From Bacteroidota bacterium (lineage in GTDB: Bacteria > Bacteroidota > Bacteroidia > Bacteroidales > WCHB1-69): a DNA stretch of 49,331 nt. Below, piece by piece: positions 5,072 through 30,676 of this stretch. Within the stretch, counting starts at the first letter, position 1; each line of letters starts with the position of its first letter. A program made the translations under genes and the position numbers. The notes beneath the pieces were generated by a model. That model did no database searches. It saw only the letters and a program-made list of their open reading frames with translations, and had not been told where the DNA came from. The DNA is taken from contig JAGVVH010000466.1 of NCBI GenBank assembly GCA_019135895.1, positions 1 to 49,331 on the forward strand, in the 5' to 3' direction.

Positions 5072-7132
5072 ATGATTAATCCGAAATTATTAACCCCCGG
5101 TTCAATTGTGGTAGTTGGAGCTTCCAATGATATTCATAAGCCGGGCGGCAAAGTGCTGAAAAATTTACTCGATAGCAATTTTAAAGGGGCTGTTTTTGCA
5201 GTTAATCCAAAAGAAGATGAAGTTCAAGGTATCAAATGCTTCAAAAATGTGGATGATTTACCGGATGTGGACTGTGCTATTTTGGCTATCGCTGCAAAGT
5301 ATTGTCCTGCTTCGGTCAATACACTTGCTATGACCAAGAAGTGTGGTGGTTTTATCATTTTATCTGCCGGCTTTGGAGAAGAGAGTGCTGAAGGCGCTGC
5401 TTTAGAACGCGAAATTGTTAAAACCGTTAATAGTGTCAACGGAAGTCTTATCGGTCCTAATTGTACAGGCTTTTTGAATATGAACTACTGTGGAGCTTTT
5501 GATGCACCCATTCCGCCGCTGAACTCCAAAGGGATTGATTTTGTTACCGGCTCCGGCGCTACTGCTGTTTTTATTAAGGAATATGGCATTACCAACGGGT
5601 TGTCTTTCAATAGCGTCTGGGCAGTCGGAAATTCAGCCCAAATAGGTATTGAGGAAGTTCTGGAACATCTTGATACGACTTTTGACCCTGAAAAGAGTTC
5701 TAAGGTTATTATGCTTTACATGGAGAATGTGAGGAATCCACGCAAATTATTGCTTCATTCCACTTCTCTCATTAACAAAGGATGCAAGATCGCCGCCATT
5801 AAGTCGGGTGGCTCTGCTGCCGGAAGTCGTGCCGCTTCTTCTCACACAGGAGCACTGGCTACTTCAGATGTTGCAGTTGATGCTCTTTTCCGTAAAGCCG
5901 GAATCGTACGGTGCCATAATCGTGAAGAATTGACTACGGTTTGTGCTGTCTTTATGCACCCTGAAGTAAAAGGTAAAAGAGTGGCTATTATCACCCATGC
6001 CGGCGGACCTGCAGTTATGCTAACGGATGTCCTCTCTAACAACGGCCTTGAAGTGCCTCATATTGAAGGTCCTGCAGCAGATGAACTGCTCTCTAAACTC
6101 TTCGCCGGTTCTTCGGTGGGGAATCCTATCGATTTTCTTGCTACAGGTACTGCAGAACAATTAGGAACCATTATTGACTATTGTGATAATAAATTCGATA
6201 ATATTGATGCAATGTGCGTCATCTTCGGCTCGCCCGGGCTTTTCTCCAATTGGGATACCTATAAGGTCTTGGATGAAAAAATGAAAAGCTGTAAAAAACC
6301 GATTTTCCCTATTTTACCTTCTATCATCAATGTGAAAGATGAAATTGCTGATTTTATTATTAATAAAAAGAGAATTAACTTCCCGGAAGAGTGTGTTTTG
6401 GGAAATGCGCTGGCAAAAGTTATTAATACGCCAAAACCGCAACCACTGAATCCTGCTATGCCCGAAATTGACTATACTGCAATTCGTAAGGTTATTGACA
6501 GTTGTGATAACGGGTATCTCTCTTTGGATAATATCCGTGCTTTGTTGGATGCTGCAAGTATCGGCTGTAAAAAAGAGGTAGAAGTGAGAACCGAAGCCGA
6601 AGCTGTCGATTATGCCCGCAAAACAGGTTATCCCCTTGTGATGAAAGTGGTTGGGCCCCTTCATAAATCGGATGTTGGTGGGGTTGTCCTGAATGTCAAA
6701 AATGAAGAAACTGTCAGAAAGGAATTTCAAAGACTGATAAAAATTCAGGATACATATGCAGTGGAATTGTATCCGATGCTCTTTGGAACAGAGATGTTTA
6801 TTGGGGCTTCCCGAGAAGAGAAATTTGGCCATCAGGTGCTCTTTGGGCTGGGCGGTATTTTTGTGGAAGTAATGAAAGATGTGAAAGCTGCTCTCGCTCC
6901 GGTTAATGTGGAAGAAGCTAAAGCCCTTATCAAGGATTTGAAAGGATATAAGATAATTAAAGGAGTGCGTGGTCAACAACCTGTCAATGAAGATTATTTT
7001 GCCGAAACTGTTGCTCGTGTATCGGCATTAGTGACTGCAGCGCCGGAAATTGCCGAGATGGATCTCAATCCTTTGTTGGGGACTCCTGAATCTATAATTG
7101 CAGTTGATGCAAGAATCAGAATTGAAAAATAG
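5072..7132 (+). CDS. Acyl/acetyl-CoA synthetase (ADP/NDP-forming), fused alpha-beta subunits
   Basis: This family converts acyl-CoA, ADP and phosphate reversibly into the free acid, ATP and CoA, which conserves energy during fermentation. The N-terminal CoA-binding Rossmann domain (residues 1-130, VVVGASND near residue 14) is followed by the succinyl-CoA-ligase-like alpha domains. These carry the phosphohistidine motif SSHTGALA (His258). The C-terminal part (about 480-686) is the ATP-grasp beta domain with VMKVVGP, HKSDVGGV and EMDLNPL. All 686 residues form one chain in alpha-beta order, as in single-chain bacterial and archaeal enzymes. It follows the phosphohexomutase by 6 nt and precedes the flippase by 20 nt, so the three genes probably share a transcript. 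Acid specificity is unknown. Confidence 0.9.
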   Translation: MINPKLLTPGSIVVVGASNDIHKPGGKVLKNLLDSNFKGAVFAVNPKEDEVQGIKCFKNVDDLPDVDCAILAIAAKYCPASVNTLAMTKKCGGFIILSAGFGEESAEGAALEREIVKTVNSVNGSLIGPNCTGFLNMNYCGAFDAPIPPLNSKGIDFVTGSGATAVFIKEYGITNGLSFNSVWAVGNSAQIGIEEVLEHLDTTFDPEKSSKVIMLYMENVRNPRKLLLHSTSLINKGCKIAAIKSGGSAAGSRAASSHTGALATSDVAVDALFRKAGIVRCHNREELTTVCAVFMHPEVKGKRVAIITHAGGPAVMLTDVLSNNGLEVPHIEGPAADELLSKLFAGSSVGNPIDFLATGTAEQLGTIIDYCDNKFDNIDAMCVIFGSPGLFSNWDTYKVLDEKMKSCKKPIFPILPSIINVKDEIADFIINKKRINFPEECVLGNALAKVINTPKPQPLNPAMPEIDYTAIRKVIDSCDNGYLSLDNIRALLDAASIGCKKEVEVRTEAEAVDYARKTGYPLVMKVVGPLHKSDVGGVVLNVKNEETVRKEFQRLIKIQDTYAVELYPMLFGTEMFIGASREEKFGHQVLFGLGGIFVEVMKDVKAALAPVNVEEAKALIKDLKGYKIIKGVRGQQPVNEDYFAETVARVSALVTAAPEIAEMDLNPLLGTPESIIAVDARIRIEK

Positions 7133-7152
7133 GCTGCGCTAAATATTCTTAC

Positions 7153-8694
7153 ATGGGTGTCATTATCCGGCAGAGCATAAAAGGAACTATTGTCAACTAT
7201 ATAGGCTCTTTCATTGGGTTTATTACTACTTTCTTTATTATAACCCGCTATCTTACTACCGAAGAGATAGGTCTTACCAGAGTGCTTTTGGAAGTATCGG
7301 GATTATTTGCCGGAATAGCACAATTGGGGACAAATTCCTCTGTGATGAGGTTTTTCCCCTATTTTAAAGATCCCGAAAAGAAAGACCATGGCATTTTCTT
7401 CTGGTCTCTGATTGTCCCGCTTGCGGGGTTCCTCTTTTTTCTTATCCTCTATCTCTGTCTGCAAGGACCAATTACAAGTTTCTTTTCCGAAAAATCACCC
7501 CTTTTTCTGGATTACTCTTATTATGTGATTCCATTGTCCTTCTTTTTGTTGTATATCAGCGTTTTTGAGACCAATTCAAATGTTCTCTACCGTATTGTGG
7601 TTCCAAAGCTGATTAGAGAGGTGATAATTCGGCTGATGCTGATTGTGGTCTATTTACTCTATGCTTTTCGGGTTCTGAATTTAGACGGTTTTATTATTGC
7701 TTTTTGTTTGACTTATGGAATAGCCCTCTGTATCAATATCTTTTATCTCTTCTCTCTGCAACGGGTTTCCCTGAAACCTGACATGGAGCACATAACAAAG
7801 CCTATACGAAGGGATTTCTTATTTTATACTTTATTTCTGATTACTGCTGCCTTAGGTGGAGCAATTACTCCAAGTATCAATACTATTTTTGTCAGTGCCC
7901 GTATGGGACTCTCTTTTACGGGTGTTTTTGCGGTAGCTACTTTTATTGCTGCTATTATCGAAATTCCGTATCGTTCTCTGGGTGCTATTTCGCAACCTCA
8001 TATCTCGCAAGCTATCAAAGATAACGATATTAAAGCAGCTAACGATTTGTGCAAGAGTGTTTCACTCCATCAGTTGTTGGTGGGGAGTTTTATTTTCTTT
8101 TTTATATGGATCAATATTGACCTTATTTTTGCCATTCTTCCAAATGGGCAAGAGTATGTTGCTGGGAAATGGGTGGTCTTTATTGTTGGGCTCTCCCGTC
8201 TTTTTAACTCTGCTTTTAGTGTGGGAACTTCAGTGTTGGGATATTCCAAATACTACTATTTCTCTCTAATCTTTACTTTTTTACTAACGGGTACGGCGAT
8301 TTTGCTCAATATCGCTTGGATTCCTGTATGGGGTTTAAACGGAGCAGCATTGGCGACGTTAGTCTCTTATGTTATATATTATTTTTTCTTACTCGGACTG
8401 GTGAGATGGAAAATTAAAACCTCTCCTTTCTCTTTTAAACAGGTTGTTGTGGTGTTGATAATATTGGCCCTTTTTGCTTTAAATATCATTTGGGAAGCTT
8501 ATCTTTCTCCGTTATTTTTATCTCTCCCGATGAAACCAATTTGGAGTAATATTGTTGACGGAGTTATTTCTTCTGTTTTGTTTGGAGTTGCCGGCGGATT
8601 AGCTGTTTATCATTTTAAAGTTTCCGAACAGATTAATAGTCTGGTTAGAAAGTATTGGAAGAAATCTCTTGAATGGATTCATCTGAAAAGATAG
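7153..8694 (+). CDS. Polysaccharide flippase/exporter (MOP/Wzx-like superfamily)
   Basis: A 513-residue, very hydrophobic protein with about 12-14 membrane segments. The N-terminal stretch (GTIVNYIGSFIGFITTFFI) and the following segment around TEEIGLTRVLLEVSG resemble Wzx/RfbX-type polysaccharide biosynthesis proteins of the MOP superfamily, which flip lipid-linked sugars across the inner membrane. A short basic C-terminal tail follows the last segment. Its place 20 nt after the acyl-CoA synthetase suggests co-transcription. No glycosyltransferase cluster lies beside it, so the glycan it handles is unknown. Confidence 0.8.
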   Translation: MGVIIRQSIKGTIVNYIGSFIGFITTFFIITRYLTTEEIGLTRVLLEVSGLFAGIAQLGTNSSVMRFFPYFKDPEKKDHGIFFWSLIVPLAGFLFFLILYLCLQGPITSFFSEKSPLFLDYSYYVIPLSFFLLYISVFETNSNVLYRIVVPKLIREVIIRLMLIVVYLLYAFRVLNLDGFIIAFCLTYGIALCINIFYLFSLQRVSLKPDMEHITKPIRRDFLFYTLFLITAALGGAITPSINTIFVSARMGLSFTGVFAVATFIAAIIEIPYRSLGAISQPHISQAIKDNDIKAANDLCKSVSLHQLLVGSFIFFFIWINIDLIFAILPNGQEYVAGKWVVFIVGLSRLFNSAFSVGTSVLGYSKYYYFSLIFTFLLTGTAILLNIAWIPVWGLNGAALATLVSYVIYYFFLLGLVRWKIKTSPFSFKQVVVVLIILALFALNIIWEAYLSPLFLSLPMKPIWSNIVDGVISSVLFGVAGGLAVYHFKVSEQINSLVRKYWKKSLEWIHLKR

Positions 8695-8806
8695 TCTTCC
8701 GATTGTTGTCGATTTATTCTTTAATAGACGCTATTTGATGTGGACAAGAATCTTATATAAGTTCACTGAATTCAAGTCTTTTTATTGAAGATGTTTCGTT
8801 CAAGGT

Positions 8807-9555
8807 TTATTTGCTTTTCTCTTTTTTCACTAACTCAATTGTATGAGTAGGGAGTTCAATTCCCCCATAATCACTGTGTCCCGGGATTACAGTTTGAATA
8901 CCAATATATTTGTTCAGGAGCTTTTTTATGGTCAAATCCCAATCTGCAACAACTGCATCTGATAAGTTCCCTGAGTCTTGAGAATCTGATGATTTTACCA
9001 AACAACCGCCAAAAAGTATTTTTTTATCCGGAATCCAGACAGTAATATTGTCAAAGAAGTGACCTGCACCAAAAAATCTACATTCAATTTGTTCTCCGTT
9101 AAAGTCAAAAGTCAACGAATCGCTGAAAGCGATTGAAGGGATAGGCAAACCTATCTCTTTACATTTTTCTACTGTCATTGAATTGGCAATTGACTCAACT
9201 CCTATACTTTGCAAATATTCTAATCCACCTAAACAATCATTGTGGAAATGTCCTATAATTAATGAAGTCAAATTGACTGAAAATGAATCCCTAAGAAATT
9301 TAGTTAACCTCTCGGTTTTATCATTATCCATTGGAGTATCAATCATTAAAGCCTCACCCTCTTTGATCAGAATCAGCCCATTTGAAGAAAAATATCAATT
9401 TCCAACATGTTTCCAGGTTACATGTGAAAAAAGGAATCTTACAGATGTATCAATTGAATATCATCATCAATCTTTATAACATTATCTTTCTGCGCTTTGG
9501 AGCTTACTACTAAACCAATCAAAGTAATAATAATAAAATTCCTCTTTTTAATCAT
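8807..9555 (-). pseudogene. Disrupted subclass B1 metallo-beta-lactamase gene
   Basis: The longest intact piece (8807-9346, 179 codons) holds every B1 zinc ligand: HFHND (His116, His118, Asp120 in standard numbering), GAGHFFDN (His196), FGGCLVKS (Cys221) and PGHSDYGG (His263). The N-terminal part is present upstream but broken. An ATG at 9555 encodes a signal peptide (MIKKRNFIIITLIGLVVSS, then KAQ) and the usual B1 start VIKIDDDIQLIHL, and then hits TAA at 9439-9441. Homology resumes in another frame (HVTWKHVGN), which meets TGA at 9395-9397 before FSSNGLILIKEGEALMIDTP. Two nonsense codons plus a frameshift near the T-rich run at about 9425-9435 make a functional secreted enzyme unlikely. The closest family member I can name is CcrA of Bacteroides fragilis. 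A truncated protein from the ATG at 9346 would lack the signal peptide and the first beta strands. Confidence 0.85.
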
Positions 9556-9687
9556 TTATTTCTATTAATACTTTTATTGATTCTTTCTTTTATTGTGAGC
9601 ATAAATAAAATCAGAAAATAATAAGAAACGAAATATCATTATTCTTTCAAAAATTATGGTTTAAATTATTTATAAGAAGAAACAAGA

Positions 9688-10695
9688 TTATTTATACTCA
9701 AAAAATCTATTAACTCTAACTTGAGCATTTTCTCTAAGATTATAGTAATAGAAAGGAATATCAAAACTGTGATAAACACCTAGCCCCATAGCACCTGAAA
9801 TATTAAACATGCTGCTATCGTTCACACTGGTACACTCAAGAACTCCTTTTTCAAGATTAATACGGGCATCTGCAAAATTGGGAATCATTCCACAATTACC
9901 TTGATTATCGATAGGCATGTAGGAACCCAAACTTTCAGCTGTGGTAGCTAATGTCTCATCTCTTCTCCAGTTTATGGGATTAATAACCAACCCTATATTG
10001 TCTGCCATTACAATATTTCCACCGGGAGCTAAAGAGGGTGATTGTGTATTATAGGAAATAATTACTCCTGTATCATCAGGACCTTCAGCAAATTTGAGAT
10101 GGGGATTTGTATTCATATACTCGGCAGTTACTGGATATCCTATCACGTATGCACAAACCATATGTCTGTAAACATCAGGATTTGTATGCATGTAATTTTT
10201 TAATAAAAACAACAGTACATTAGCCCCTTGTGAGTGACCGACCAAAATAAAAGGTCTTCCTGAGTTGTAATGCTTTATGTAATAGTCAAATGCGTTGGTG
10301 ACATCTGTAGCAGGGATACTGCCAACAACATTCCAACGTTCATCTTCCGGGAGAGAAAGAGTATATTCCGCATCAGCTTGTCTATAATAAGGGGCGTATA
10401 TATTCCCAACAGTCTCAAAAGCAGTGGCCTGTCTGTCAAAGGCCATTTGAGAGCCGATAAGCATTATCGGATTGTTAATTGCACAAAAATTTGGTTCTGA
10501 TGAGTCTTCTTTGTACCAAGCAGTTGGGTAAACATAGAAAATATCTACCTCTTTTGTAATATTGTTAGGGAGAGATAACCAGTTTTCCCGTTTTGAATAA
10601 TCGGGAAAAGAGGATTGATCTGGATTGTCTGTCTTTTTGCAAGAATAAAGCGATAGAAAACAAATTATCACTAATAGTTTTGTCGTAATTTTCAT
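9688..10695 (-). CDS. DUF3089-family alpha/beta-hydrolase lipoprotein
   Basis: A 335-residue predicted lipoprotein: the signal peptide ends in the lipobox LYSC (Cys19). The body is an alpha/beta-hydrolase of the DUF3089 type, with the nucleophile elbow GHSQG (Ser155) after a beta strand (RPFILV) and an upstream FYVYPTAW segment typical of the family. A late GVYHSFDIPFYY segment may supply the catalytic histidine. The substrate is unknown; an ester or lipid is likely from the fold. The gene stands alone, downstream of its own promoter-like element and upstream of the beta-lactamase pseudogene on the same strand. Confidence 0.8.
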   Translation of the reverse strand: MKITTKLLVIICFLSLYSCKKTDNPDQSSFPDYSKRENWLSLPNNITKEVDIFYVYPTAWYKEDSSEPNFCAINNPIMLIGSQMAFDRQATAFETVGNIYAPYYRQADAEYTLSLPEDERWNVVGSIPATDVTNAFDYYIKHYNSGRPFILVGHSQGANVLLFLLKNYMHTNPDVYRHMVCAYVIGYPVTAEYMNTNPHLKFAEGPDDTGVIISYNTQSPSLAPGGNIVMADNIGLVINPINWRRDETLATTAESLGSYMPIDNQGNCGMIPNFADARINLEKGVLECTSVNDSSMFNISGAMGLGVYHSFDIPFYYYNLRENAQVRVNRFFEYK

Positions 10696-10804
10696 AATAC
10701 ATTTCTTTTTATAAATTCTATTTTAACCCTTATTTTGTTTCGTTAAATAGCTATCAGAATTAATTTTAATTCTATTGATCCACTAAATATTGAACTTTCT
10801 TTTG

Positions 10805-10812
10805 CAAATGTA
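10805..10812 (-). promoter_or_regulatory. -7 box of the DUF3089 gene
   Basis: On the minus strand this reads TACATTTG, an exact TAnnTTTG match, about 110 nt upstream of the ATG at 10695. No clear -33 element was found. Confidence 0.35.
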
Positions 10813-10966
10813 TATATTTTTTTGACTTAATTCTCTCCTGAAGAGTGATATCAGAATCCCCTTTGGCAAATTTATTGCAACCTTAATACTCAATTGAAGT
10901 TGATTTCTTTTATTATATGCAATTTTATTCTGTTTAATATCAATAAGTTGGCAAAAAATGTGTTTT

Positions 10967-11007
10967 TTTAAACAAAAAGTTTAAACAGATGTTTAAAACA
11001 AATGTTT
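10967..11007. promoter_or_regulatory. Candidate TetR operator: three adjoining dyads
   Basis: AAACAGATGTTT (10983-10994) and AAACAAATGTTT (10996-11007) are two copies of the palindrome AAACAnnTGTTT with start points 13 bp apart. Just upstream, TTTAAAC-AAAAA-GTTTAAA (10967-10985) is a perfect inverted repeat overlapping the first copy. The cluster ends 59 bp before the TetR start codon. Repeated dyads upstream of a TetR gene heading an efflux operon are typical of self-repression, so this is inferred to be its operator. Confidence 0.6.
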
Positions 11008-11066
11008 TTTATATTATTTTTACTGCGTCAAAATTATTAGATAATACACTTTAAAATTAATAGGTT

Positions 11067-11675
11067 ATGACGGATGCGATAACTGAGGAAAAAATAAAAA
11101 ATGCTGCAAGAGTGATATTTACCCAAAAGGGATATGCCTCGGCAAAAATGCGAGATATTGCAACTTTAGCTGGGGTTAATCTTGCCTTGGTCAATTATTA
11201 TTTCAGGAGCAAGGATAATATTTTCAAAATAATCATGCGAGAGAAGATGTACAAAATATTCGGCATGATTTTTCCTTATATGCAGGATGAGAATACTACG
11301 TTAGAAGAAAAAATTACCAAAATTTCTGAAATATATATAGATATGTTATCTGAGGATCCGAATTTACCGATTTTTGTTTTTGGGGAAATACAGAAAGAAC
11401 CGGAAAATTTCACTTCAATGTTGCCAATTACGAGTGCTAATATCAAGGAAATGTCTATTGCTAAACAATTTAGTCAGTATGATACCGGTATTAGTCCGGT
11501 TCATTTTATGCTCAATTTTCTTGGTATGACCATTTTCCCATTTATAGCTATGCCACTTCTTGAGAAAATTAAGGTGGAATCTCCAGAAAATTTAAAATTG
11601 CTGATTAAGGAGCGTAAGAAGATGATTCCTATTTGGATGAAAAATATGTTCAACAATGACAATTATAAAAAATAA
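11067..11675 (+). CDS. TetR/AcrR-family transcriptional regulator
   Basis: A 202-residue one-component repressor-type protein. The N-terminal TetR DNA-binding domain (about 8-55) is clear: AARVIFTQKGY, then MRDIATLAGVN and LVNYYFRSKDNIF, which together make the helix-turn-helix. The C-terminal helices would form the ligand pocket and dimer face. It is the first gene of the efflux operon (19 nt before the TolC gene), like cecR/ybiH ahead of ybhGFSR in E. coli. The dyads at 10967-11007 are its likely target, and the inducer is unknown. Confidence 0.9.
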   Translation: MTDAITEEKIKNAARVIFTQKGYASAKMRDIATLAGVNLALVNYYFRSKDNIFKIIMREKMYKIFGMIFPYMQDENTTLEEKITKISEIYIDMLSEDPNLPIFVFGEIQKEPENFTSMLPITSANIKEMSIAKQFSQYDTGISPVHFMLNFLGMTIFPFIAMPLLEKIKVESPENLKLLIKERKKMIPIWMKNMFNNDNYKK

Positions 11676-11693
11676 TATAAACACAGAGATAAG

Positions 11694-12971
11694 ATGAAAA
11701 AACTGATTCTAAATATTTGTTTATTACTATTCGTCTCGCAGTTGTTTTCACAAACTATTACGCTTGACGACTGTTATATGGCGGCAAGGAAGAATTATCC
11801 TTTGATAAAGCAGTATGACCTGATTGAGCAGTCTAAAGGCTATAATCTTGCTACTGCCGCAAAAGGCTATTTTCCTCAAATCTCTCTGAATGCCAGAGCT
11901 TCATGGCAATCTGATGTGACAGAATTTCCGGATGCTTTCATGGTTATAATGAATCAGATGGGGATTGATGGAATTTCATTTCCCGACAAAGATCAATATC
12001 GTATAGTGTTTGAGTTATATCAAACCATTTGGGACGGAGGAATGATTTCTGCGGTGCAAAAGCAAGTGAAAGCGCAGTCTGAGATTGATAAACAGCGAAT
12101 AGAGGTTGATCTTTATACGGTTAACAATCAGATCAACCAGCTTTATTTTGGCATTCTGCTGTTGGATGAACAACTGATACAAAATGATCTTTTCCAAAAG
12201 GAGCTTCAGCGCAACTACGACCGTATCAGCAGCTATGCCGACAATGGGTTGGCAAATCAATCTGACCTTAATAAAATCAAAGTAGAGATTCTCTCCCGTC
12301 GTCAAGCTGCCACAGAAATGAAAAATAGTCGGGATGCTTTTTTGATGATGCTTTCTTTGTTTATTGGCGAAAAACTTGGAGAAAACGCCGTATTGGAAAA
12401 ACCTACGGATTCATTGTCAATTTCGGAAGAGATAGATCGTCCCGAACTTAAACTTTTTGATGCTCAGTTGCAACAGTTTGATAGTCGGAAAAGTGGAATA
12501 CTTGCGAAAGGAATGCCTAATATTGGACTATTTGCCCAAGGAGCTTATGCTGACCCCGGGTTAAACATGTTCAATAGTGGCTTTCAACCCTATTTCATTG
12601 GGGGAATCAGCTTGTCATGGAATTTTGGCAGACTATATTCCTACAGGGATGAATGCGATAATGTAGAAGTGGGTAAAAAAAGTATAGAAGTTCAAAGGGA
12701 AGCTTTTTTGTTTAACTTAAATCAGAAAATTGTCAAAAGCAACTCAGATATAGAGAAAATAAGGGAATTAATCAAAAATGACGATGAAATCATTCTATTG
12801 AGGGAGCAAATCAAGGCAGTATCTGAGGCAAAAGTAGAAAACGGCACAATGAGCATTAACGACTTCCTGCAGGATATTGTCCTGGCGGATTTGGCAAAGC
12901 AGAATAAGTCGCTTCATGAAATGCAGTTACTGCTAACGCTTTATCAATTGAAAGTGGAAAAAGGTAAATAG
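11694..12971 (+). CDS. TolC-family outer-membrane efflux channel
   Basis: A 425-residue secreted protein with a signal peptide ending near LFSQ (residues 1-19). Two outer-membrane-efflux-protein repeats follow. The mature start TITLDDCYMAARKNYP is the usual TolC/OEP opening, and the rest is rich in long coiled helices that in TolC form the periplasmic tunnel. It lies between the regulator and the adaptor (24 nt before the latter), so it is the dedicated outer-membrane exit duct. E. coli ybhGFSR has no such gene in its operon. Confidence 0.88.
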   Translation: MKKLILNICLLLFVSQLFSQTITLDDCYMAARKNYPLIKQYDLIEQSKGYNLATAAKGYFPQISLNARASWQSDVTEFPDAFMVIMNQMGIDGISFPDKDQYRIVFELYQTIWDGGMISAVQKQVKAQSEIDKQRIEVDLYTVNNQINQLYFGILLLDEQLIQNDLFQKELQRNYDRISSYADNGLANQSDLNKIKVEILSRRQAATEMKNSRDAFLMMLSLFIGEKLGENAVLEKPTDSLSISEEIDRPELKLFDAQLQQFDSRKSGILAKGMPNIGLFAQGAYADPGLNMFNSGFQPYFIGGISLSWNFGRLYSYRDECDNVEVGKKSIEVQREAFLFNLNQKIVKSNSDIEKIRELIKNDDEIILLREQIKAVSEAKVENGTMSINDFLQDIVLADLAKQNKSLHEMQLLLTLYQLKVEKGK

Positions 12972-12995
12972 TAATAATTTTAATAATATAATAAA

Positions 12996-13901
12996 ATGAA
13001 AACAACTCATGTCAGAATTATCTTACTGGTTTCTTGTTTAATAGTATGTTTTGCATCTTGCCGCAAATCGGCTGTAAACTATGATGCTGCTGGAACTTTT
13101 GAAGCAGTGGAAGTGATTGTTTCTTCGGAATCAAGCGGAAAGATTTTATTTTTCGATGTGGACGAGGGTAGGGAGGTCAAGTCGGGCGAATTGTTGGGCT
13201 ATACAGACACTACGCAGCTTTTTCTTAAAAAACTGCAACTTCAGAGCAGTGCCAAAGCGGTTTTAAACAGAAAGTCGGATGTTGGCAAACAGGTCGCCGC
13301 TCTTCAGCAGCAGATTGCTACTGCCAAAGTTGAGAAAAAACGGATCGAAAATCTGTTAAAGGCCAATGCTGCGAATACCAAGCAATTAGATGATATCAAT
13401 GCTCAAATTACAACGTTGGAAAAACAACTTGATGCACAGAAATCAATGCTTGAAAATGCCAACAGCAGCATTTCAGAAGAGAGTAGTGCCATGGGAATTC
13501 AGATTGCACAATTGAATGACCAGCTAAAGAAATGCTATATTACAACTCCTATCAATGGGACCATTCTGGTCAAGTATTCCGAGCAGGGAGAGTTGGCCAT
13601 TCCGGGGAAAGCTCTCTTTAAAGTGGCAGATGTGAGCAATATGATTTTGCGGGCTTATGTGACCTCCGGTCAATTGACAAAACTTAAAATTGGACAGCAG
13701 GTGAAAGTGGGAGCAGATTTTGGAGAAGATGGGATTCGTGAATACAAAGGAACTATCTCATGGATTTCATCAAAGTCGGAATTTACCCCCAAGACCATTC
13801 AGACTCAGGATGAACGTGCTAATTTGGTCTATGCTGTCAAAATTAAAGTTAAAAATGACGGCTATCTGAAAATTGGAATGTACGGAGAGGTAAACTTTTA
13901 A
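12996..13901 (+). CDS. HlyD/YbhG-like membrane-fusion adaptor lipoprotein
   Basis: A 301-residue periplasmic adaptor anchored as a lipoprotein: the signal peptide ends in the lipobox FASC (Cys22). The split biotinyl-lipoyl half-motifs (GTFEAVEVIVSSESSGKI and, after the hairpin, YITTPINGTIL) flank a long coiled-coil hairpin (about residues 75-175, rich in Q, K and E). A beta-barrel domain follows (VSNMILRAYVTSGQLTKLKIGQQVKV). It would link the inner-membrane ABC transporter to the TolC-like channel. Gene order matches YbhG ahead of YbhF. Confidence 0.88.
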   Translation: MKTTHVRIILLVSCLIVCFASCRKSAVNYDAAGTFEAVEVIVSSESSGKILFFDVDEGREVKSGELLGYTDTTQLFLKKLQLQSSAKAVLNRKSDVGKQVAALQQQIATAKVEKKRIENLLKANAANTKQLDDINAQITTLEKQLDAQKSMLENANSSISEESSAMGIQIAQLNDQLKKCYITTPINGTILVKYSEQGELAIPGKALFKVADVSNMILRAYVTSGQLTKLKIGQQVKVGADFGEDGIREYKGTISWISSKSEFTPKTIQTQDERANLVYAVKIKVKNDGYLKIGMYGEVNF

Positions 13902-13924
13902 GGGGAAGTTATTAATAGGGAAAA

Positions 13925-14869
13925 ATGTTAAATAGCATGATTACTGCAAATAACATAAAAAAGAAATATGGCAAGGTGGAAGCTTTGAATAATATCTCTT
14001 TCGAGGTAAATAAGGGAGATATTTTCGGCATTATTGGTCCTGACGGGGCCGGCAAAACCACCCTGTTTCGTATTCTCACTACGTTGCTTTTGGCTGATAG
14101 TGGTAGCGCTACTGTTAACGGACTTGACGTCATTAAAGAGTTCCGTAAGATTAGAAATATCATTGGCTATATGCCGGGGCGATTTTCACTTTATCAGGAT
14201 TTATCGGTGGAAGAAAATCTCAATTTTTATGCCAGCATCTTCAATACCACTATTGAAGAAAACTATGCGATGATTAAGGAAATCTATCAGCAGCTTGAAC
14301 CTTTCAAAACTCGCCGTGCAGGGGCACTTTCGGGTGGAATGAAACAGAAGTTGGCACTCTGTTGTGCGCTGATTCATAAACCTGTTGTTTTGTTCTTAGA
14401 TGAACCGACTACCGGTGTGGATCCTGTTTCCAGAAAAGAGTTTTGGGAAATGCTAATGAGAATTAAAAAGGAAGGAATTACCATTATGGTATCCACTTCT
14501 TATATGGATGAAGCCGGCCTTTGCGACCGTATTGCCCTGATTCAAAATGGCTCTTTTCTCAAAGTAGATACTCCTCAAAATATTGTTAGTCAGTATTTTG
14601 AAACCCTTTGGGCAGCTTCTTCGGAAAATATGTCGAAATTACTTACTGCTCTCAAAGATTTTCCGGTAGTTAAAAAATGTTATCCTTTCGGTGATGTACA
14701 TCACATTACTATCGACCTTCAACAAAATAATTTGATAGGTCCTTCATCTCTCCCTTTTACACCAGAGTTACTGAAAGAAGAGCTTGAAAAATTGGGACAT
14801 TGCGGGGTTATCGTGAATAAAATAGAGCCTACCATTGAAGATTGTTTCATGGAACTCTCAAAAAATTAA
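13925..14869 (+). CDS. ABC transporter ATPase, equivalent of the N-terminal half of YbhF
   Basis: A 314-residue ATPase with Walker A GPDGAGKTT (38-46), signature LSGGMKQK and Walker B VVLFLDEPTTGVDP. The unusual Asp in the Walker A motif (GPDGAGKT) is shared with the N-terminal ATPase half of E. coli YbhF as I recall it. The Q-loop reads GYMPGRF, where YbhF has GYMPQKF, so the Gln is replaced by Gly. The C-terminal 80 residues are an extra domain. An internal ATG at 13937 is an alternative start. It pairs with the next ATPase to power the two permeases. Confidence 0.9.
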   Translation: MLNSMITANNIKKKYGKVEALNNISFEVNKGDIFGIIGPDGAGKTTLFRILTTLLLADSGSATVNGLDVIKEFRKIRNIIGYMPGRFSLYQDLSVEENLNFYASIFNTTIEENYAMIKEIYQQLEPFKTRRAGALSGGMKQKLALCCALIHKPVVLFLDEPTTGVDPVSRKEFWEMLMRIKKEGITIMVSTSYMDEAGLCDRIALIQNGSFLKVDTPQNIVSQYFETLWAASSENMSKLLTALKDFPVVKKCYPFGDVHHITIDLQQNNLIGPSSLPFTPELLKEELEKLGHCGVIVNKIEPTIEDCFMELSKN

Positions 14870-14899
14870 ATCAATTAAAGATTATAATAGTAATAAACA

Positions 14900-15679
14900 A
14901 TGAATATGCCTGATGACAAGCTCTTTCCACAGTCTGCCGACAACAGAGAACTGTCTATAGTAGCCAATCAAATCACCAAGCGATTTGGCTCTTTTACTGC
15001 TGTTGACCATATCAGTTTTGATGTGAAGAAAGGAGAAATCTTCGGTTTTTTGGGGGCAAACGGTGCGGGAAAAACAACTGCAATGAAAATGCTTTGCGGA
15101 TTGAGTAAGCCAACTTCCGGGAAAGCCACAGTAGCAGGTTTTGATGTCACCACTCAATCGGAACAAATTAAAAAAAATATCGGCTACATGAGCCAGAAGT
15201 TTTCTCTTTATGAAGATTTGAAGGTATGGGAAAATATGCGCCTCTATGCCGGAATATACGGAGTGGAGGAAAAAGTTATTGATTCCCGTATTGATGAGTT
15301 TTTGGAACAATTGGGCTTACAGAAGGAGAAAAATAGTATGGTCAAATCACTCCCTTTGGGTTGGAAACAGAAATTGGCTTTTACAGTTTCTATTATTCAT
15401 AAACCCGGAATAGTCTTTCTGGATGAACCTACCGGAGGAGTAGATCCGGCTTCCCGCCGACAGTTTTGGGAGTTGATTTATCAGACAGCCGATAAAGGAA
15501 TTACTGTATTTGTGACCACTCACTATATGGACGAAGCTGAATATTGTGATCGTATATCCATCATGGTAGATGGAAAAATTGTAAAATTAGATACTCCGGC
15601 AAATCTGAAAAAGGAGTTTGCAGCTAAAAATATGGATGAAGTGTTCCGTCTGCTGGCTAGAAAAGCAATAAGAAATTAA
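14900..15679 (+). CDS. ABC transporter ATPase, equivalent of the C-terminal half of YbhF
   Basis: A 259-residue ATPase with Walker A GANGAGKTT, Q-loop MSQKFSLYEDL, Walker B IVFLDEPTGGVDP and H-loop TTHYMDEAEYCDRI. The signature motif is degenerate, LPLGWKQK instead of LSGGxxQ. The C-terminal half of E. coli YbhF carries nearly the same variant (LPLGFKQR). The two ATPases are therefore the separated halves of a YbhF-type protein, encoded 30 nt apart. In the heterodimer one site would use the canonical LSGG and the other this variant, so ATP hydrolysis is probably asymmetric. Confidence 0.9.
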   Translation: MNMPDDKLFPQSADNRELSIVANQITKRFGSFTAVDHISFDVKKGEIFGFLGANGAGKTTAMKMLCGLSKPTSGKATVAGFDVTTQSEQIKKNIGYMSQKFSLYEDLKVWENMRLYAGIYGVEEKVIDSRIDEFLEQLGLQKEKNSMVKSLPLGWKQKLAFTVSIIHKPGIVFLDEPTGGVDPASRRQFWELIYQTADKGITVFVTTHYMDEAEYCDRISIMVDGKIVKLDTPANLKKEFAAKNMDEVFRLLARKAIRN

Positions 15680-15690
15680 ATGAATAAAAA

Positions 15691-16818
15691 ATGAAAAAGA
15701 CCGCTCATTCTGCTTTTTACTCGTTTGCCATAAAAGAATTTTATCACATCTTTCGTGACAGGTGGACAACCATCATTTTGCTGATAATGCCGATTCTGAT
15801 GATTATCCTTTTTGGATTTGCTATCACTACCGAAGTTAAAAATGCCAAGATTGCCATTTTGGATCCTTCTCAAGATGCCGCCACTCACGCCATTGTAAAC
15901 AAACTGGGCACCAGCGAATATTTCATCATCGACCGTTATCTCCATTCAAAAAATGAGGTGGATGAGATTTTTAAAGAAGGGGATATCGGTATGGTCGTAG
16001 TTTTTAGCGAAAATTTTTATGAAAATATGATGCATACGGGCAATGCCCAAATAGAGCTTATTGCCGATGGTAGTGACCCTAATTCTGCGTTAACGTTGAC
16101 TCGCTATGCCACTGCTCTGATAGCAAGCTACCATCAAGAGTTATTGGCAACCCCTGAATTGCAAATGCCATTTCAAATTAACAGTGAAGTGAAATTTCTC
16201 TATAATCCTACTCTAAAAGGGGCTTATAACACTGTTCCTGGGGTAATGGGAATGGTGCTGATGCTGATCTGTGCCATGATGACAGCCGTTTCTATTGCCC
16301 GCGAAAAAGAATTGGGAACGATGGAAATTCTTTTAGTTTCACCTCTAAAACCTATTACCATCATCCTTTCAAAAACGGTGCCCTATATTGTTTTGTCATT
16401 AATAAATCTTGGTACTTTGCTATTGCTTTCGGTATTTGCACTTAAAGTTCCTATTGCGGGAAGTCTGTGGCTGATCATTTTTATTTCCCTTATTTTCATT
16501 TTTGTCTCGCTTGCTCTGGGGTTGCTTATCTCTACTGTTGCCAAGTCACAAATGGTGGCAATGCTCATATCGGGAGTGATTCTGATGCTACCTGTAATTT
16601 TGCTTTCCGGAATTATTTTTCCTACTGAGAGTATGAATCTATTTTTCCTATGGCTTTCTAAAATTATCCCTGCCAATTGGTATATCTCCGCTATTAAAAA
16701 AGTGATGATTCAAGGCTTGGGATTTGCTTCGGTGATAAAAGAATTATCTATTCTTGCAGGAATGGCAATCCTATTAGTTGCCCTTAGTCTCAAAAAATTT
16801 AAAGTAAGATTGTCGTGA
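15691..16818 (+). CDS. ABC-2 type permease (YbhS/YbhR family)
   Basis: A 375-residue inner-membrane permease of the ABC-2 type. One N-terminal membrane segment (TTIILLIMPILMIILFGFA) is followed by a large periplasmic domain (about 50-180) and five C-terminal segments. The family loop EKELGTMEILLVSPLKP lies before the third segment. It forms the translocation path with the next gene product, 18 nt downstream. E. coli YbhFSR has been linked to cation and drug export; the substrate here is not readable from sequence. Confidence 0.9.
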   Translation: MKKTAHSAFYSFAIKEFYHIFRDRWTTIILLIMPILMIILFGFAITTEVKNAKIAILDPSQDAATHAIVNKLGTSEYFIIDRYLHSKNEVDEIFKEGDIGMVVVFSENFYENMMHTGNAQIELIADGSDPNSALTLTRYATALIASYHQELLATPELQMPFQINSEVKFLYNPTLKGAYNTVPGVMGMVLMLICAMMTAVSIAREKELGTMEILLVSPLKPITIILSKTVPYIVLSLINLGTLLLLSVFALKVPIAGSLWLIIFISLIFIFVSLALGLLISTVAKSQMVAMLISGVILMLPVILLSGIIFPTESMNLFFLWLSKIIPANWYISAIKKVMIQGLGFASVIKELSILAGMAILLVALSLKKFKVRLS

Positions 16819-16836
16819 TTATAAAATATTACTATC

Positions 16837-17952
16837 ATGCTGAAATATTTGTTGGAAAAGGAGTTTAAACAGTTTATAAGAAACAGATTTCTTCCAAAAT
16901 TTGTGATAATCTTTCCATTTGCTGCTCTGGCGATTTTTCCGCTGGTTGCCAATATGGAGATTAAAAATAGTAAATTGGCAGTGGTGAACCACGATAATAG
17001 CACTCTCTCAACCCGTTTGATTGAAAAGATAAAATCCTCCGGCTATTTTATAATTACTGATGTTTCCAATAGCAAATCACATATTTATGATTGTATAGAA
17101 GAGGGAAAGGCTGACGAGGTACTTGAAATTCCTGCAGGGTTTGAAACTGATCTTATCAAAGAAAATAAAACAAAAGTGATGATTTCCGCTAATGCCGTCA
17201 ACGGGATGAAGGCCGGTTTGAGCAGTGCTTATCTTGGGGAAATAATTGCCGATTTCAACGGGGATATCCGGATGGAGCTGATGCAACCCTCTAATCGATT
17301 GTCAGCCCCGAAATTCTCTATCATTCCTCTATACCGCTACAATCCCATGATGAAATCACTCTACAATATGATTCCGGCCTTGTTGGTTATGTTAATGGCA
17401 ATGGTTTGCGGATTCTTGCCGGCACTTAATATTGTGAGTGAAAAGGAAAATGGAACCATTGAGCAGATGAATGTAACTCCTGTTAATAAATTCACTCTCA
17501 TTCTTTCTAAGCTGATACCTTTTTGGTTGGTGGGTTTTATTGCCCTGACCATCTGTATATTTGTAGCTTGGCTCTTTTACGGGTTTTTCCCGTCCGGAAA
17601 TGTAATGACAATCTATTTGTTTGAAGCCGTTTTTGTTTTGGCAATGTCCGGTTTTGGTCTGGTGATTTCTAATTATGCCAAAACTATCCAGCAGGCAATG
17701 TTCATCATGTTTTTCTTTGTGCTTACTTTTATTTTCCTGAGCGGTCTATATACACCTTTTTCTAATATGCCGCAATGGGCACAGGTGCTCGGTCATTTCA
17801 GCCCGTTAAAGTACATTATTCAGGTGATAAGACTTATTTATCTCAAAGGTAGTGGTTTCCTTGAGATGATGCCCCAGTTCTTTGCTTTGCTTGGATTGGC
17901 AATATTTTTCAATATCTGGGCTGTTTTTAGCTACAGAAAAAGAGTAGGTTGA
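16837..17952 (+). CDS. ABC-2 type permease (YbhR/YbhS family)
   Basis: A 371-residue paralogue of the preceding permease with the same layout: an N-terminal membrane segment, a periplasmic domain and a C-terminal five-segment bundle. Its ABC-2 loop reads EKENGTIEQMNVTPVNKF. It is the last gene of the efflux operon. The convergent S33 peptidase gene ends 17 nt further on, leaving little room for a conventional terminator; none was seen. Confidence 0.9.
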   Translation: MLKYLLEKEFKQFIRNRFLPKFVIIFPFAALAIFPLVANMEIKNSKLAVVNHDNSTLSTRLIEKIKSSGYFIITDVSNSKSHIYDCIEEGKADEVLEIPAGFETDLIKENKTKVMISANAVNGMKAGLSSAYLGEIIADFNGDIRMELMQPSNRLSAPKFSIIPLYRYNPMMKSLYNMIPALLVMLMAMVCGFLPALNIVSEKENGTIEQMNVTPVNKFTLILSKLIPFWLVGFIALTICIFVAWLFYGFFPSGNVMTIYLFEAVFVLAMSGFGLVISNYAKTIQQAMFIMFFFVLTFIFLSGLYTPFSNMPQWAQVLGHFSPLKYIIQVIRLIYLKGSGFLEMMPQFFALLGLAIFFNIWAVFSYRKRVG

Positions 17953-17969: not shown

Positions 17970-18923
17970 TTATCTTTCTGCCTTTCTCAGAAAATCAGAC
18001 ACAACTTTTAGATATTCATCTTCCTTTTCAATATGATGGGAATGAGAGGCATCTTTGAAAACATATATTTCAGAATCTTGAATTTTGCTCTGGTAATAAG
18101 CTGTAGTCCATGGGGTTGCTTCATCAAATTCTCCGCAGGTGAACAATACGGGGCATTTGATTTTATGGAGTTGATCCGTCAGATCTGTCTCTTTCAACGT
18201 GCCATTTAAAGTAAATTCGCTTGGACCAATCATATAACCATATATGTCACTGCTCGATTTCTCCAGTGTGGCAATTAAGTATGGAGGCCAGGGATCAAGC
18301 CTGCATAGGTGTTTATTGTAAAATATTGTCATCGCTTCTTGATACGCCTTTGAGGCAAAGTCGCCGCTTTTTTCATATTTGGCGATGGTATCTTGTATGG
18401 AAACAGGAAGTTGTGAAACCCATTTTTTCTGGTCGGCAATCCATCTTGGAGAACTTAAATAAGCTCCCGAAAAGATAAGACTGACAATACCTTTCGGATT
18501 TTTCTCTATCATGTAACTTGCCGCAAGCATGCTTCCCCATGACTGCCCTAAAATATGGAGTTTGTCGAGATGTAACGCCGTGCGCACCTGTTCAAGCTCT
18601 TCCACAAAACGCGGCAAATTCCATAACGAACTATCCGAAGGCTTGTCAGAATTTCCACATCCCAGTTGGTCGTAAAAGATGACAGGCCGCTCTTTAGCAA
18701 TTTCTTCAAGGGGCTGTAAATAGTCATGAGGGGCTCCCGGACCTCCATGCAATACCAATAAAGGAATTCCTTTTTTATCGGCTCCGCAGATTTTGTACCA
18801 CACTTTTCCGCCGGTTACTGCTACATAGCCTTCCTTTGTAATTGGTAATTCTTTTTCTTTCTTAGAATTACAGGAAAATAATACGATGGTCATCATGGTT
18901 ATTATTAGTAAGTTTAATTTCAT
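17970..18923 (-). CDS. S33-family proline iminopeptidase-like lipoprotein
   Basis: A 317-residue alpha/beta-hydrolase of the prolyl aminopeptidase (S33) type, exported as a lipoprotein (lipobox LFSC, Cys18). Diagnostic motifs are the oxyanion loop HGGPG (59-63), DQLGCGNSDKP (from 85) and the nucleophile elbow GQSWGS (Ser128). The acid GEFDEATP and the His in DASHSHHIE complete the triad. S33 enzymes release N-terminal proline or other residues from short peptides. The lipoprotein signal places this one in the envelope, where it could process imported or periplasmic peptides. Confidence 0.85.
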   Translation of the reverse strand: MKLNLLIITMMTIVLFSCNSKKEKELPITKEGYVAVTGGKVWYKICGADKKGIPLLVLHGGPGAPHDYLQPLEEIAKERPVIFYDQLGCGNSDKPSDSSLWNLPRFVEELEQVRTALHLDKLHILGQSWGSMLAASYMIEKNPKGIVSLIFSGAYLSSPRWIADQKKWVSQLPVSIQDTIAKYEKSGDFASKAYQEAMTIFYNKHLCRLDPWPPYLIATLEKSSSDIYGYMIGPSEFTLNGTLKETDLTDQLHKIKCPVLFTCGEFDEATPWTTAYYQSKIQDSEIYVFKDASHSHHIEKEDEYLKVVSDFLRKAER

Positions 18924-18937
18924 TTATGTTTTTTTTA

Positions 18938-18945
18938 CAAAAATA
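18938..18945 (-). promoter_or_regulatory. -7 box of the S33 peptidase gene
   Basis: The minus strand reads TATTTTTG, an exact TAnnTTTG match, 14 nt upstream of the ATG at 18923. It implies a leader of roughly ten nucleotides. Confidence 0.45.
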
Positions 18946-19227
18946 AAAATAGTTTACATAAAAATGATTATGAAATTAAGAAATTATCTATCAGAGCAAT
19001 TTACGAATATTCATCTTCTGAAGAAAATGATACTTTTCAGTAATAAATTTTCGATAATTTTACCACATCTCATGCAAATCGAGGAGAAATTTTCTCAAAA
19101 GATTCATCAAATGATTCTCCTGATAGCGCATTCATAGTTAAATCGGAAAGCCTAATAGCGTGGTAAAGCGAGCTATGGGGCCAAATAAGTATAATAATTG
19201 ATATGAATTAAATTAATTGTTTATTTT

Positions 19228-28963: not shown

Positions 28964-30229
28964 TTATTGTGCCTTAACAATAATACAATCTTTTAATTTT
29001 GTTGAAAAACAAGGAGATACTTGTGTCCTGTTATAGAGCGATTTAGTCCTAAAACCTTCCGCTCCGATTTTAACAGTTTCTCTTCCGTATTGCAAATTGA
29101 GGCGGTCCATTGTTTCCATAAGTTTTTTCTTTTCTGCTCCGGGAAGAGGAACAAAAAGATTGGTCTGAGTGGAGGTGCAATCGACAATATCAGTCACAAT
29201 CACGCCGGCCTGTTTATATAAGAAGTTATCTTTATAGATAGCCTTTAATCCTGTGAGAGCAGCCATTGCAATTTGGGATGAATCAGCCGTGCTTACAGGC
29301 AATTTGACAATTTTGGAATTGTAATAGGATGGCAAATCTTTTCGATGGCGGTTAGTCGCAATAAAAACCATCACAGTGTTGGCAGCGTTTGCTTGTTGTC
29401 GGAGTTTGCCGGCACAATTCACGGCATAAGAGGCAACAGCTTCCGACAAAGTATCATAATTGTCAATCATTGGGGAGAAACTGCGTGATGTACAGATTTG
29501 CTTTTTTTCAGGGGGATAATATTGAAATTCAATGCAGCTATTCCCATTTAGTTCACTCCACGTTCTTTCTCCCACAACGGAAAAATGCTTTCTAACCCAA
29601 TCCTTATCGCATTGTGCAAATTGGAGAGCAGTTGTAATATTTGCAGAGATAAGAGCTTTAGAGTATTGGCGACCAATTCCCCAAACATCCTCAATAGGAA
29701 AATCGTGCAGGGCTTCTTGAATTTCGTGGTTATTTCTAGTCAGTTTGACAGCTCCTTGTTTTCCTATTTTTTTTGCATATTTAGCGGCTACTTTTGCCAG
29801 TGTTTTTGTTGGGGCAATTCCCATACTCAGCGGAATCCCAATTCCTTTGAAAACAGTCTGTACAATAGTTTCCCCATATTTAAGCAAATCAAATCTCTCA
29901 AAAGAACGCAAATCTAAGAAAGCTTCATCAATAGAATATATTTCGATATCGGGAACATAGCTGCCGAGTAATTGCATCATCCTTTGAGACATGTCGCCGT
30001 AAAGAATATAATTAGATGAAAAGACAGTTACTAAATTATCCTCTATCAGTTTCTTTATTTGATACGCAGGGGTTCCCATCTTGATTCCCAAAGCTTTTGC
30101 TTCATTGCTTCGTGCAATAACACATCCATCGTTATTAGACAGAACCACAATAGCTTTATTACGCAATGCCGGATTGAAAACCCGCTCGCAGGATGCATAA
30201 AAATTATTGGCATCAGCAAGTGCAAACAT
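28964..30229 (-). CDS. umuC: Y-family DNA polymerase V catalytic subunit UmuC
   Basis: This subunit carries out error-prone translesion synthesis together with processed UmuD. The 421-residue length is normal for UmuC. The polymerase domain shows the first carboxylate in ALADANNFYASCE (Asp6), the steric-gate region after it, and the YSIDEAFLDL motif (Asp101, Glu102). The UmuC-specific C-terminal part is present (SRSFSPMI, then the little-finger domain). It starts 9 nt after the umuD stop and is the last gene of the efp-lpxD-umuDC unit. Confidence 0.93.
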   Translation of the reverse strand: MFALADANNFYASCERVFNPALRNKAIVVLSNNDGCVIARSNEAKALGIKMGTPAYQIKKLIEDNLVTVFSSNYILYGDMSQRMMQLLGSYVPDIEIYSIDEAFLDLRSFERFDLLKYGETIVQTVFKGIGIPLSMGIAPTKTLAKVAAKYAKKIGKQGAVKLTRNNHEIQEALHDFPIEDVWGIGRQYSKALISANITTALQFAQCDKDWVRKHFSVVGERTWSELNGNSCIEFQYYPPEKKQICTSRSFSPMIDNYDTLSEAVASYAVNCAGKLRQQANAANTVMVFIATNRHRKDLPSYYNSKIVKLPVSTADSSQIAMAALTGLKAIYKDNFLYKQAGVIVTDIVDCTSTQTNLFVPLPGAEKKKLMETMDRLNLQYGRETVKIGAEGFRTKSLYNRTQVSPCFSTKLKDCIIVKAQ

Positions 30230-30238
30230 CGTTGGGAA

Positions 30239-30676
30239 TTAATGTTTTTTAATAGAGAAAGTGACTATACCCCAAATTACAAAGTTGTTTTCTTCAGTAA
30301 CCTTGATAGATTTATAGTTTGGATTTGCAGGGACAAGCCAAATACAATTAGTATCTTTTTTAATAAATTTAAGAGTAAATTCCCCATCAATAAAACAGAC
30401 AGCCACATCTCCCTCTTTTGGAGTCAGGGATTTATCAATAACAATTAAATCTCCGTCATCAATTCCTGCATTTTTCATGGAATCACCTTTAACTTTTCCG
30501 AAGAAGGTAGAAACAGGGTGTGATATCAGCTCTTTATTGAGGTCAATTCCGGTTTCAAGGAAATCCTGAGCAGGACTTGGGAAGCCGGCAGAAATAGGGT
30601 TTTCAATAAATGGAATTGATAATTCAACAGAATTATTAACAGAGATTATTTTGACATTACTTTCTTTATTTTCCAC
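30239..30676 (-). CDS. umuD: UmuD-like S24-family self-cleaving protein
   Basis: This polymerase V accessory protein is activated by RecA-stimulated self-cleavage. In its 145 residues the catalytic Ser is Ser66 (GDSMKNAG) and the Lys is Lys103 (EFTLKF), with the scissile bond probably Ala30-Gly31 (SAGFPSP). The spacings of 36 and 37 residues match those of E. coli UmuD (Cys24-Gly25, Ser60, Lys97). The start is a GTG at 30676 whose first base is the last base of the preceding TAG stop (TAGTG), so translation is probably coupled to the lpxD-like gene. No SOS-type operator can be placed directly upstream because that sequence is coding. Confidence 0.92.
   Translation of the reverse strand: MENKESNVKIISVNNSVELSIPFIENPISAGFPSPAQDFLETGIDLNKELISHPVSTFFGKVKGDSMKNAGIDDGDLIVIDKSLTPKEGDVAVCFIDGEFTLKFIKKDTNCIWLVPANPNYKSIKVTEENNFVIWGIVTFSIKKH

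What the first reader, a model, noticed from the sequence alone, without database searches (positions are those of the whole stretch)
8807..9555. Decaying chromosomal subclass B1 metallo-beta-lactamase
All six zinc ligands survive, yet the N-terminal 70 codons carry a TAA (9439-9441), a frameshift near 9425-9435 and a TGA (9395-9397). The remnants upstream still read as a signal peptide and B1 N-terminus once frames are switched. This implies an ancestral periplasmic carbapenemase-type enzyme that was lost recently enough to stay recognisable, in a setting with no mobile element.
Basis: seen in the sequence. Interest (0 to 1): 0.55.

Follow-up and report, generated by a model that had tools for sequence, protein, structure and literature searches.

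The report
Broken carbapenemase-type gene in environmental bacterium
An uncultured relative of gut Bacteroides carries a recently broken copy of an antibiotic-degrading (metallo-beta-lactamase) gene, most likely picked up from a distant relative and then lost; this is an ordinary kind of gene decay, and intact versions exist in related bacteria.

Summary
Positions 9555-8807 (-) are a subclass B1 metallo-beta-lactamase gene. Its last 179 codons are open and keep all six zinc ligands. Its front, about 70 codons, carries a TAA, a frame change and a TGA, and is one codon shorter than in eight relatives. Its three readable pieces match an intact relative (0 of 5000 shuffles each). Of 19 near relatives, 17 are intact. 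The remaining frame shows no relaxed selection (omega 0.039 against 0.067; rough, synonymous sites saturated), so the loss is recent, or the lesions are an artefact. No reads were available; other genes of the contig look whole. 'Ancestral' is not supported: 3 of 104 host-family genomes (own included) have any relative, the other two remote, and nine family genomes lack it beside the conserved flippase. The two nearest copies in genomes I could test (75% and 70%, other families) lie in genomes whose phosphoglucomutase is only 53% and 52% identical. Best reading: an acquired CcrA-like chromosomal B1 gene, recently lost. Ordinary; low interest.

The parts
8807..9346 (-). remaining open frame (179 aa) of the B1 metallo-beta-lactamase, zinc ligands kept
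9347..9555 (-). broken N-terminal part: signal peptide and start of the mature protein, readable in three pieces
9439..9441 (-). in-frame TAA
9424..9435 (-). place where the frame changes relative to relatives
9395..9397 (-). TGA in the resumed frame; the stretch beside it is one codon shorter than in eight relatives
7153..8694 (+). convergent flippase-type gene (Polysacc_synt, 27.1 bits, just under its cut-off 28.2), found in 12 of 13 family genomes tested at 49-63% identity
9688..10695 (-). DUF3089 protein gene upstream on the same strand

Best explanation
It is a pseudogene of a CcrA-like subclass B1 metallo-beta-lactamase. Intact relatives have a signal-peptide-like start and the two-zinc ligand set, so they are expected to be secreted enzymes that hydrolyse beta-lactams (inferred from the family, not tested here). 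This lineage most likely gained the gene from another Bacteroidales family; the gene stayed under purifying selection almost to the present, here or in the donor lineage, and was then lost through lesions in its first 160 bases. Without signal peptide and first strands, the remaining 179-aa frame should give no working periplasmic enzyme (inferred). The lesions are seen directly; acquisition and timing are inferences.
For: Family: B1 model 199.5 bits over positions 44-217 of 217; CcrA 2.7e-52; intact relative of G293 260.7 bits, over the cut-off. Lesions. Orthologues: 17 of 19 near relatives intact. Recent loss: foreground omega 0.039 v. background 0.067, LR 1.47, p 0.23; a final neutral phase is below about 0.11 substitutions per codon (2dlnL 3.19 at 0.10, 6.21 at 0.15), and at 0.10 about 1.1 stops in 249 codons are expected, 2 seen. 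Acquisition: 3 of 104 family genomes have a relative, the other two remote; none beside the flippase in nine family genomes; lactamase/phosphoglucomutase identity to the window 75/53 (G293), 70/52 (G175), 67/56 (G415), 64/56 (G352), 63/56 (G338), 60/52 (G330), 58/53 (G226), 51/52 (G432), while phosphoglucomutase is 57-58% to its own genus and up to 62% within the family.
Against: No reads, so an assembly error is not excluded; the three lesions lie within 47 bases (chance 0.011 if spread evenly, post hoc). The broken mature part is less like six of eight relatives than the rest is (for L051 98/143 v. 401/537), but equal for L019 and L025; five intact pairs show differences of either sign. Substitutions at conserved positions (3 of 58) are within the range of the 19 relatives (0-6), so they show no decay. 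Synonymous sites are saturated: a control branch, L025, gave omega 0.020, p 0.0026, on a length of 20. The tree is weak around the window (supports 15-58, 25 at its own split), and the lactamase may simply evolve more slowly than phosphoglucomutase, so transfer is not proven. The three family carriers are outside the high-quality set (0 of 53 there), and many family genomes are incomplete.
Confidence: 0.78

Rival explanations
1. The lesions are an assembly or consensus error in a mixed metagenome bin; the organism has an intact enzyme.
For: The bin has 579 contigs and 8.77% contamination. The lesions are clustered in 47 bases. The remaining frame is under full purifying selection.
Against: The contig is 92% coding in 41 ORFs, and other conserved genes run to the ends of their profiles, e.g. 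GcpE 2-343 of 343, TGT 2-354 of 357, SHMT 5-398 of 399, SecG 2-70 of 70, LptE 2-117 of 118. Two stops, a frame change and a length change in one short stretch are many for base-call errors.
Confidence: 0.12
2. The gene is ancestral in this family and was lost vertically; this copy is a last remnant.
For: B1 genes are frequent in Bacteroidetes: 22.4% against 3.0% in other phyla (PMC5637372, Results part 1).
Against: 3 of 104 family genomes have a relative, the other two at 36% and 49%; nearest copies in other families; nothing beside the flippase in nine relatives.
Confidence: 0.1
3. The 179-aa frame is still translated from the internal ATG at 9346 and has a function of its own in the cytosol.
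For: No relaxed selection in this frame; the three lesions lie upstream of that ATG (chance 0.022, post hoc); L020 also lacks the N-terminus and shows no relaxation (omega 0.077 v. 0.065, p 0.66).
Against: The frame begins at chain position 50 of CcrA, so the first strands are gone, as is the signal peptide. A recent loss explains the same omega. In L020 the remnant has no usual start codon at its front and runs on into another domain.
Confidence: 0.04

Closest known systems
CcrA/CfiA subclass B1 metallo-beta-lactamase (Bacteroides fragilis)
   Same: Best solved-structure match of 167; best plasmid match, cfiA2, 45.1% identity; zinc ligands kept
   Different: The window copy has a broken N-terminus and scores 177.5 bits against the CcrA family cut-off of 550
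Group B1-3 of Bacteroidetes chromosomal B1 enzymes (PMC5637372; passages, Results part 1)
   Same: Chromosomal B1 genes of Bacteroidetes, in a group that contains CcrA
   Different: I did not place this copy in that paper's tree; it is broken, whereas 18 of 21 genes tested there were active
Copies in Anaerophaga thermohalophila (L015, 78%), G293 (L051, 75%) and HGW-Bacteroidetes-4 (L016, 74%)
   Same: Nearest relatives over the 179 aa
   Different: L051 and L016 are intact; L015 has no ATG in frame at its front (an alternative start or a draft error is possible). None of the 16 loci shares a convincing flanking gene with 26 window genes (tblastn 1e-8, flanks 0.7-5 kb a side; only weak ABC and polymerase matches at 21-25%)

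Membership tests
Subclass B1 metallo-beta-lactamase (as gene descent) | Match to the curated B1 model over its cut-off | tested here: inconclusive
   199.5 bits, cut-off 200, best of 54 families listed, with the front 43 of 217 positions missing; the intact relatives L099 and L016 pass with 260.7 and 254.5
Subclass B1 metallo-beta-lactamase (as gene descent) | Six zinc ligands HxHxD, H, C, H | tested here: met
   (motif recalled)
Subclass B1 metallo-beta-lactamase (as working enzyme) | Single open frame with signal peptide | tested here: not met
   TAA, frame change, TGA
Subclass B1 metallo-beta-lactamase (as working enzyme) | Beta-lactam hydrolysis | not testable with these tools
   needs an assay
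CcrA/CfiA family | NCBIfam CcrA cut-off | tested here: not met
   177.5 v. 550 bits; intact relative 236.7 v. 550

The most novel reading that the evidence does not exclude
N-terminally truncated B1 proteins (the window copy and L020) are kept under purifying selection as cytosolic zinc hydrolases started at an internal codon, so that this clade repeatedly turns a secreted lactamase into a cell-internal protein.
Probability: 0.03. Interest if true: 0.55.

Novelty: new member of a known kind. Interest (0 to 1): 0.13.

Why it matters
It adds one case of gain and loss of a chromosomal carbapenemase-type gene in environmental Bacteroidales, and shows a B1 clade (58-78% identity to this copy) with a patchy distribution over several families. 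It reminds that finding such a gene in a sequence survey does not equal resistance. It does not change any open question.

Tried and rejected
Rejected: contaminant or chimeric contig. The order phosphoglucomutase-CoA ligase-flippase is shared with two of four same-genus genomes, G001 and G003, CoA ligase 80-81% identical. In the other two, G002 and G004, the stretches fetched around the flippase hold neither of the other two genes. GcpE/IspG further along is nearest to family genomes of genus g7 among 393 sampled. So both sides of the lactamase look like the host family. Against: phosphoglucomutase is nearer to other genera of the family (up to 62%) than to the bin's own genus (57-58%), so the contig may belong to another member of the family.

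Rejected: an intact second copy in the genome (the only other match is 24% identical, E 0.41; a class A search gave one match under its cut-off). Rejected: mobile element, as far as 41 of the 43 ORFs and the repeats of 8300-11100 show (two overlapping ORFs, 6994-7302 and 18886-19137, were left out by hand). Plasmids: 2714 of 72,556 records match, all under 60% identity, so no close plasmid copy. Rejected as evidence: substitutions at conserved positions.

Led nowhere: a scan for TAnnTTTG upstream found nothing. Paper searches, listings only: pseudogene with CfiA, 0 papers; frame-break terms, 12 listed of 1,160, none on lactamases by title; six phrasings of lactamase pseudogene, 2 papers on other germs; Anaerophaga with lactamase, 0. 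A search on novel B1 enzymes listed 15 of 18, one of which I read in part.

Full report
What is there. On the minus strand at 9555-8807 lies a gene of the subclass B1 metallo-beta-lactamases. The mechanical ORF is 9346-8807, 179 aa. It scores 199.5 bits with the curated B1 model, 0.5 bit under the cut-off, over model positions 44-217 of 217. Its best solved relatives are CcrA chains (1znb, E 2.7e-52), where the alignment starts at chain residue 50. The six zinc ligands are in place (motif recalled). Pfam found no family for the fragment at E 0.001, whereas the intact relative of G293 passes both Pfam Lactamase_B (25.3 v. 22.7 bits) and the B1 model (260.7 bits).

The break. From the ATG at 9555 the frame runs to a TAA at 9441-9439; it then changes between about 9435 and 9424, meets a TGA at 9397-9395, and is open from there on. 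Against eight relatives the stretch is also one codon short. The pieces 9555-9442, 9424-9398 and 9394-9347 match the signal peptide and N-terminus of an intact relative (the G293 protein, read from L099) at the right places; none of 5000 shuffles reached the score of any piece.

Relatives. A scan of the genome collection gave 16 loci, the nearest in Anaerophaga thermohalophila (78%). Among 393 genomes drawn from the host order, 25 (own included) have a match at E 1e-45 or better. Of 19 distinct near relatives (58-78%; L015-L029, L051, L053, L055, L056), 17 have an intact frame with an ATG start and N-terminus. The exceptions are L015, whose signal-peptide frame has no ATG at its front (a TTG start or a draft error next to a run of A is possible), and L020, which lacks the N-terminal part and continues in frame into a SnoaL-like domain. 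A stop reported in the G001 match is simply the gene's end.

Time of loss. A codon model that I wrote, on a tree of 18 sequences, gives omega 0.039 for the window branch against 0.067 for the rest, LR 1.47, p 0.23. If the branch ended with a neutral phase, that phase is below about 0.11 substitutions per codon, when its functional part is about 2.3-3.2. So the frame was under selection almost to the present. The two stops fit such a short phase (1.1 expected at 0.10). Synonymous sites are near saturation, and of the nine branches tested L025 gave a low omega of 0.020 (p 0.0026) on an implausible length of 20, so these values are rough.

An oddity. The three disabling lesions lie within 47 bases, chance 0.011, and upstream of the internal ATG, chance 0.022; both tests are post hoc. 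The broken mature part is less like six of eight relatives than the rest of the gene is, but not less like L019 and L025. A compound local mutation or a local assembly error would give the same picture. Other genes on the contig argue against poor sequence: 41 ORFs, 92% coding, several conserved ones running to the ends of their Pfam profiles.

Origin. The contig looks like the host family: the order phosphoglucomutase-CoA ligase-flippase is shared with two of four same-genus genomes, G001 and G003. Of 13 family genomes searched for the flippase, 12 have it; I fetched nine of these. In none of the nine does a lactamase, DUF3089 or TetR-efflux match (tblastn 1e-8) lie in the fetched stretch, which reaches 1 to 8.5 kb beyond the flippase. 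Across the family 3 of 104 genomes have any relative (E 1e-10), the two others at 36% and 49% and in genomes 75% complete; among 53 high-quality family genomes none has one. In seven of eight carriers from other families the lactamase is more like the window's than phosphoglucomutase is (75 v. 53 down to 58 v. 53), in the eighth not (51 v. 52). Acquisition from another Bacteroidales family followed by loss is therefore more likely than an ancestral gene; the weak tree does not name the donor. The phosphoglucomutase of Anaerophaga was not tested. No plasmid record among 72,556 carries a copy at 60% identity or more.

Known background. Berglund and colleagues (PMC5637372; passages, Results part 1) found B1 genes in 22.4% of Bacteroidetes genomes, a Bacteroidetes group with CcrA, and 18 of 21 tested genes active. 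The window copy fits this background as a broken member of that kind. Four paper searches (listings only) showed no report of it, which is weak evidence.

Verdict. Observation confirmed; interpretation right on decay and recency, probably wrong on 'ancestral'. Interest low.

Noticed in passing
L020:4959-5909: A B1 relative in MAG GH48 lacks its N-terminal part and runs in frame into a SnoaL-like domain.
   Followed up: partly
L015:530-760: The nearest relative (Anaerophaga thermohalophila) has no ATG in frame with its signal peptide: a second broken copy, an alternative start or a draft error.
   Followed up: partly
L058 (G432), 421-aa frame: A B1 domain at 198-412 with an extra N-terminal part of about 190 aa; it looks NTF2-like by eye, not tested.
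   Followed up: no
window 11067-17952: TetR, outer-membrane efflux, HlyD-type, two ABC ATPases and two ABC-2 permeases in a row; no match to these in the stretches fetched around the flippase in nine family genomes.
   Followed up: partly
whole bin G000: The bin has 5.09 Mb and 8.77% contamination, while the 58 family genomes listed have 1.6-4.6 Mb, and phosphoglucomutase of this contig is nearer to other genera of the family than to the bin's own genus. It may hold more than one genome.
   Followed up: partly
window 28964-30478: Error-prone polymerase (impB/mucB/samB family) with a 79-aa S24 peptidase partner that matches only profile positions 45-115 of 116.
   Followed up: no
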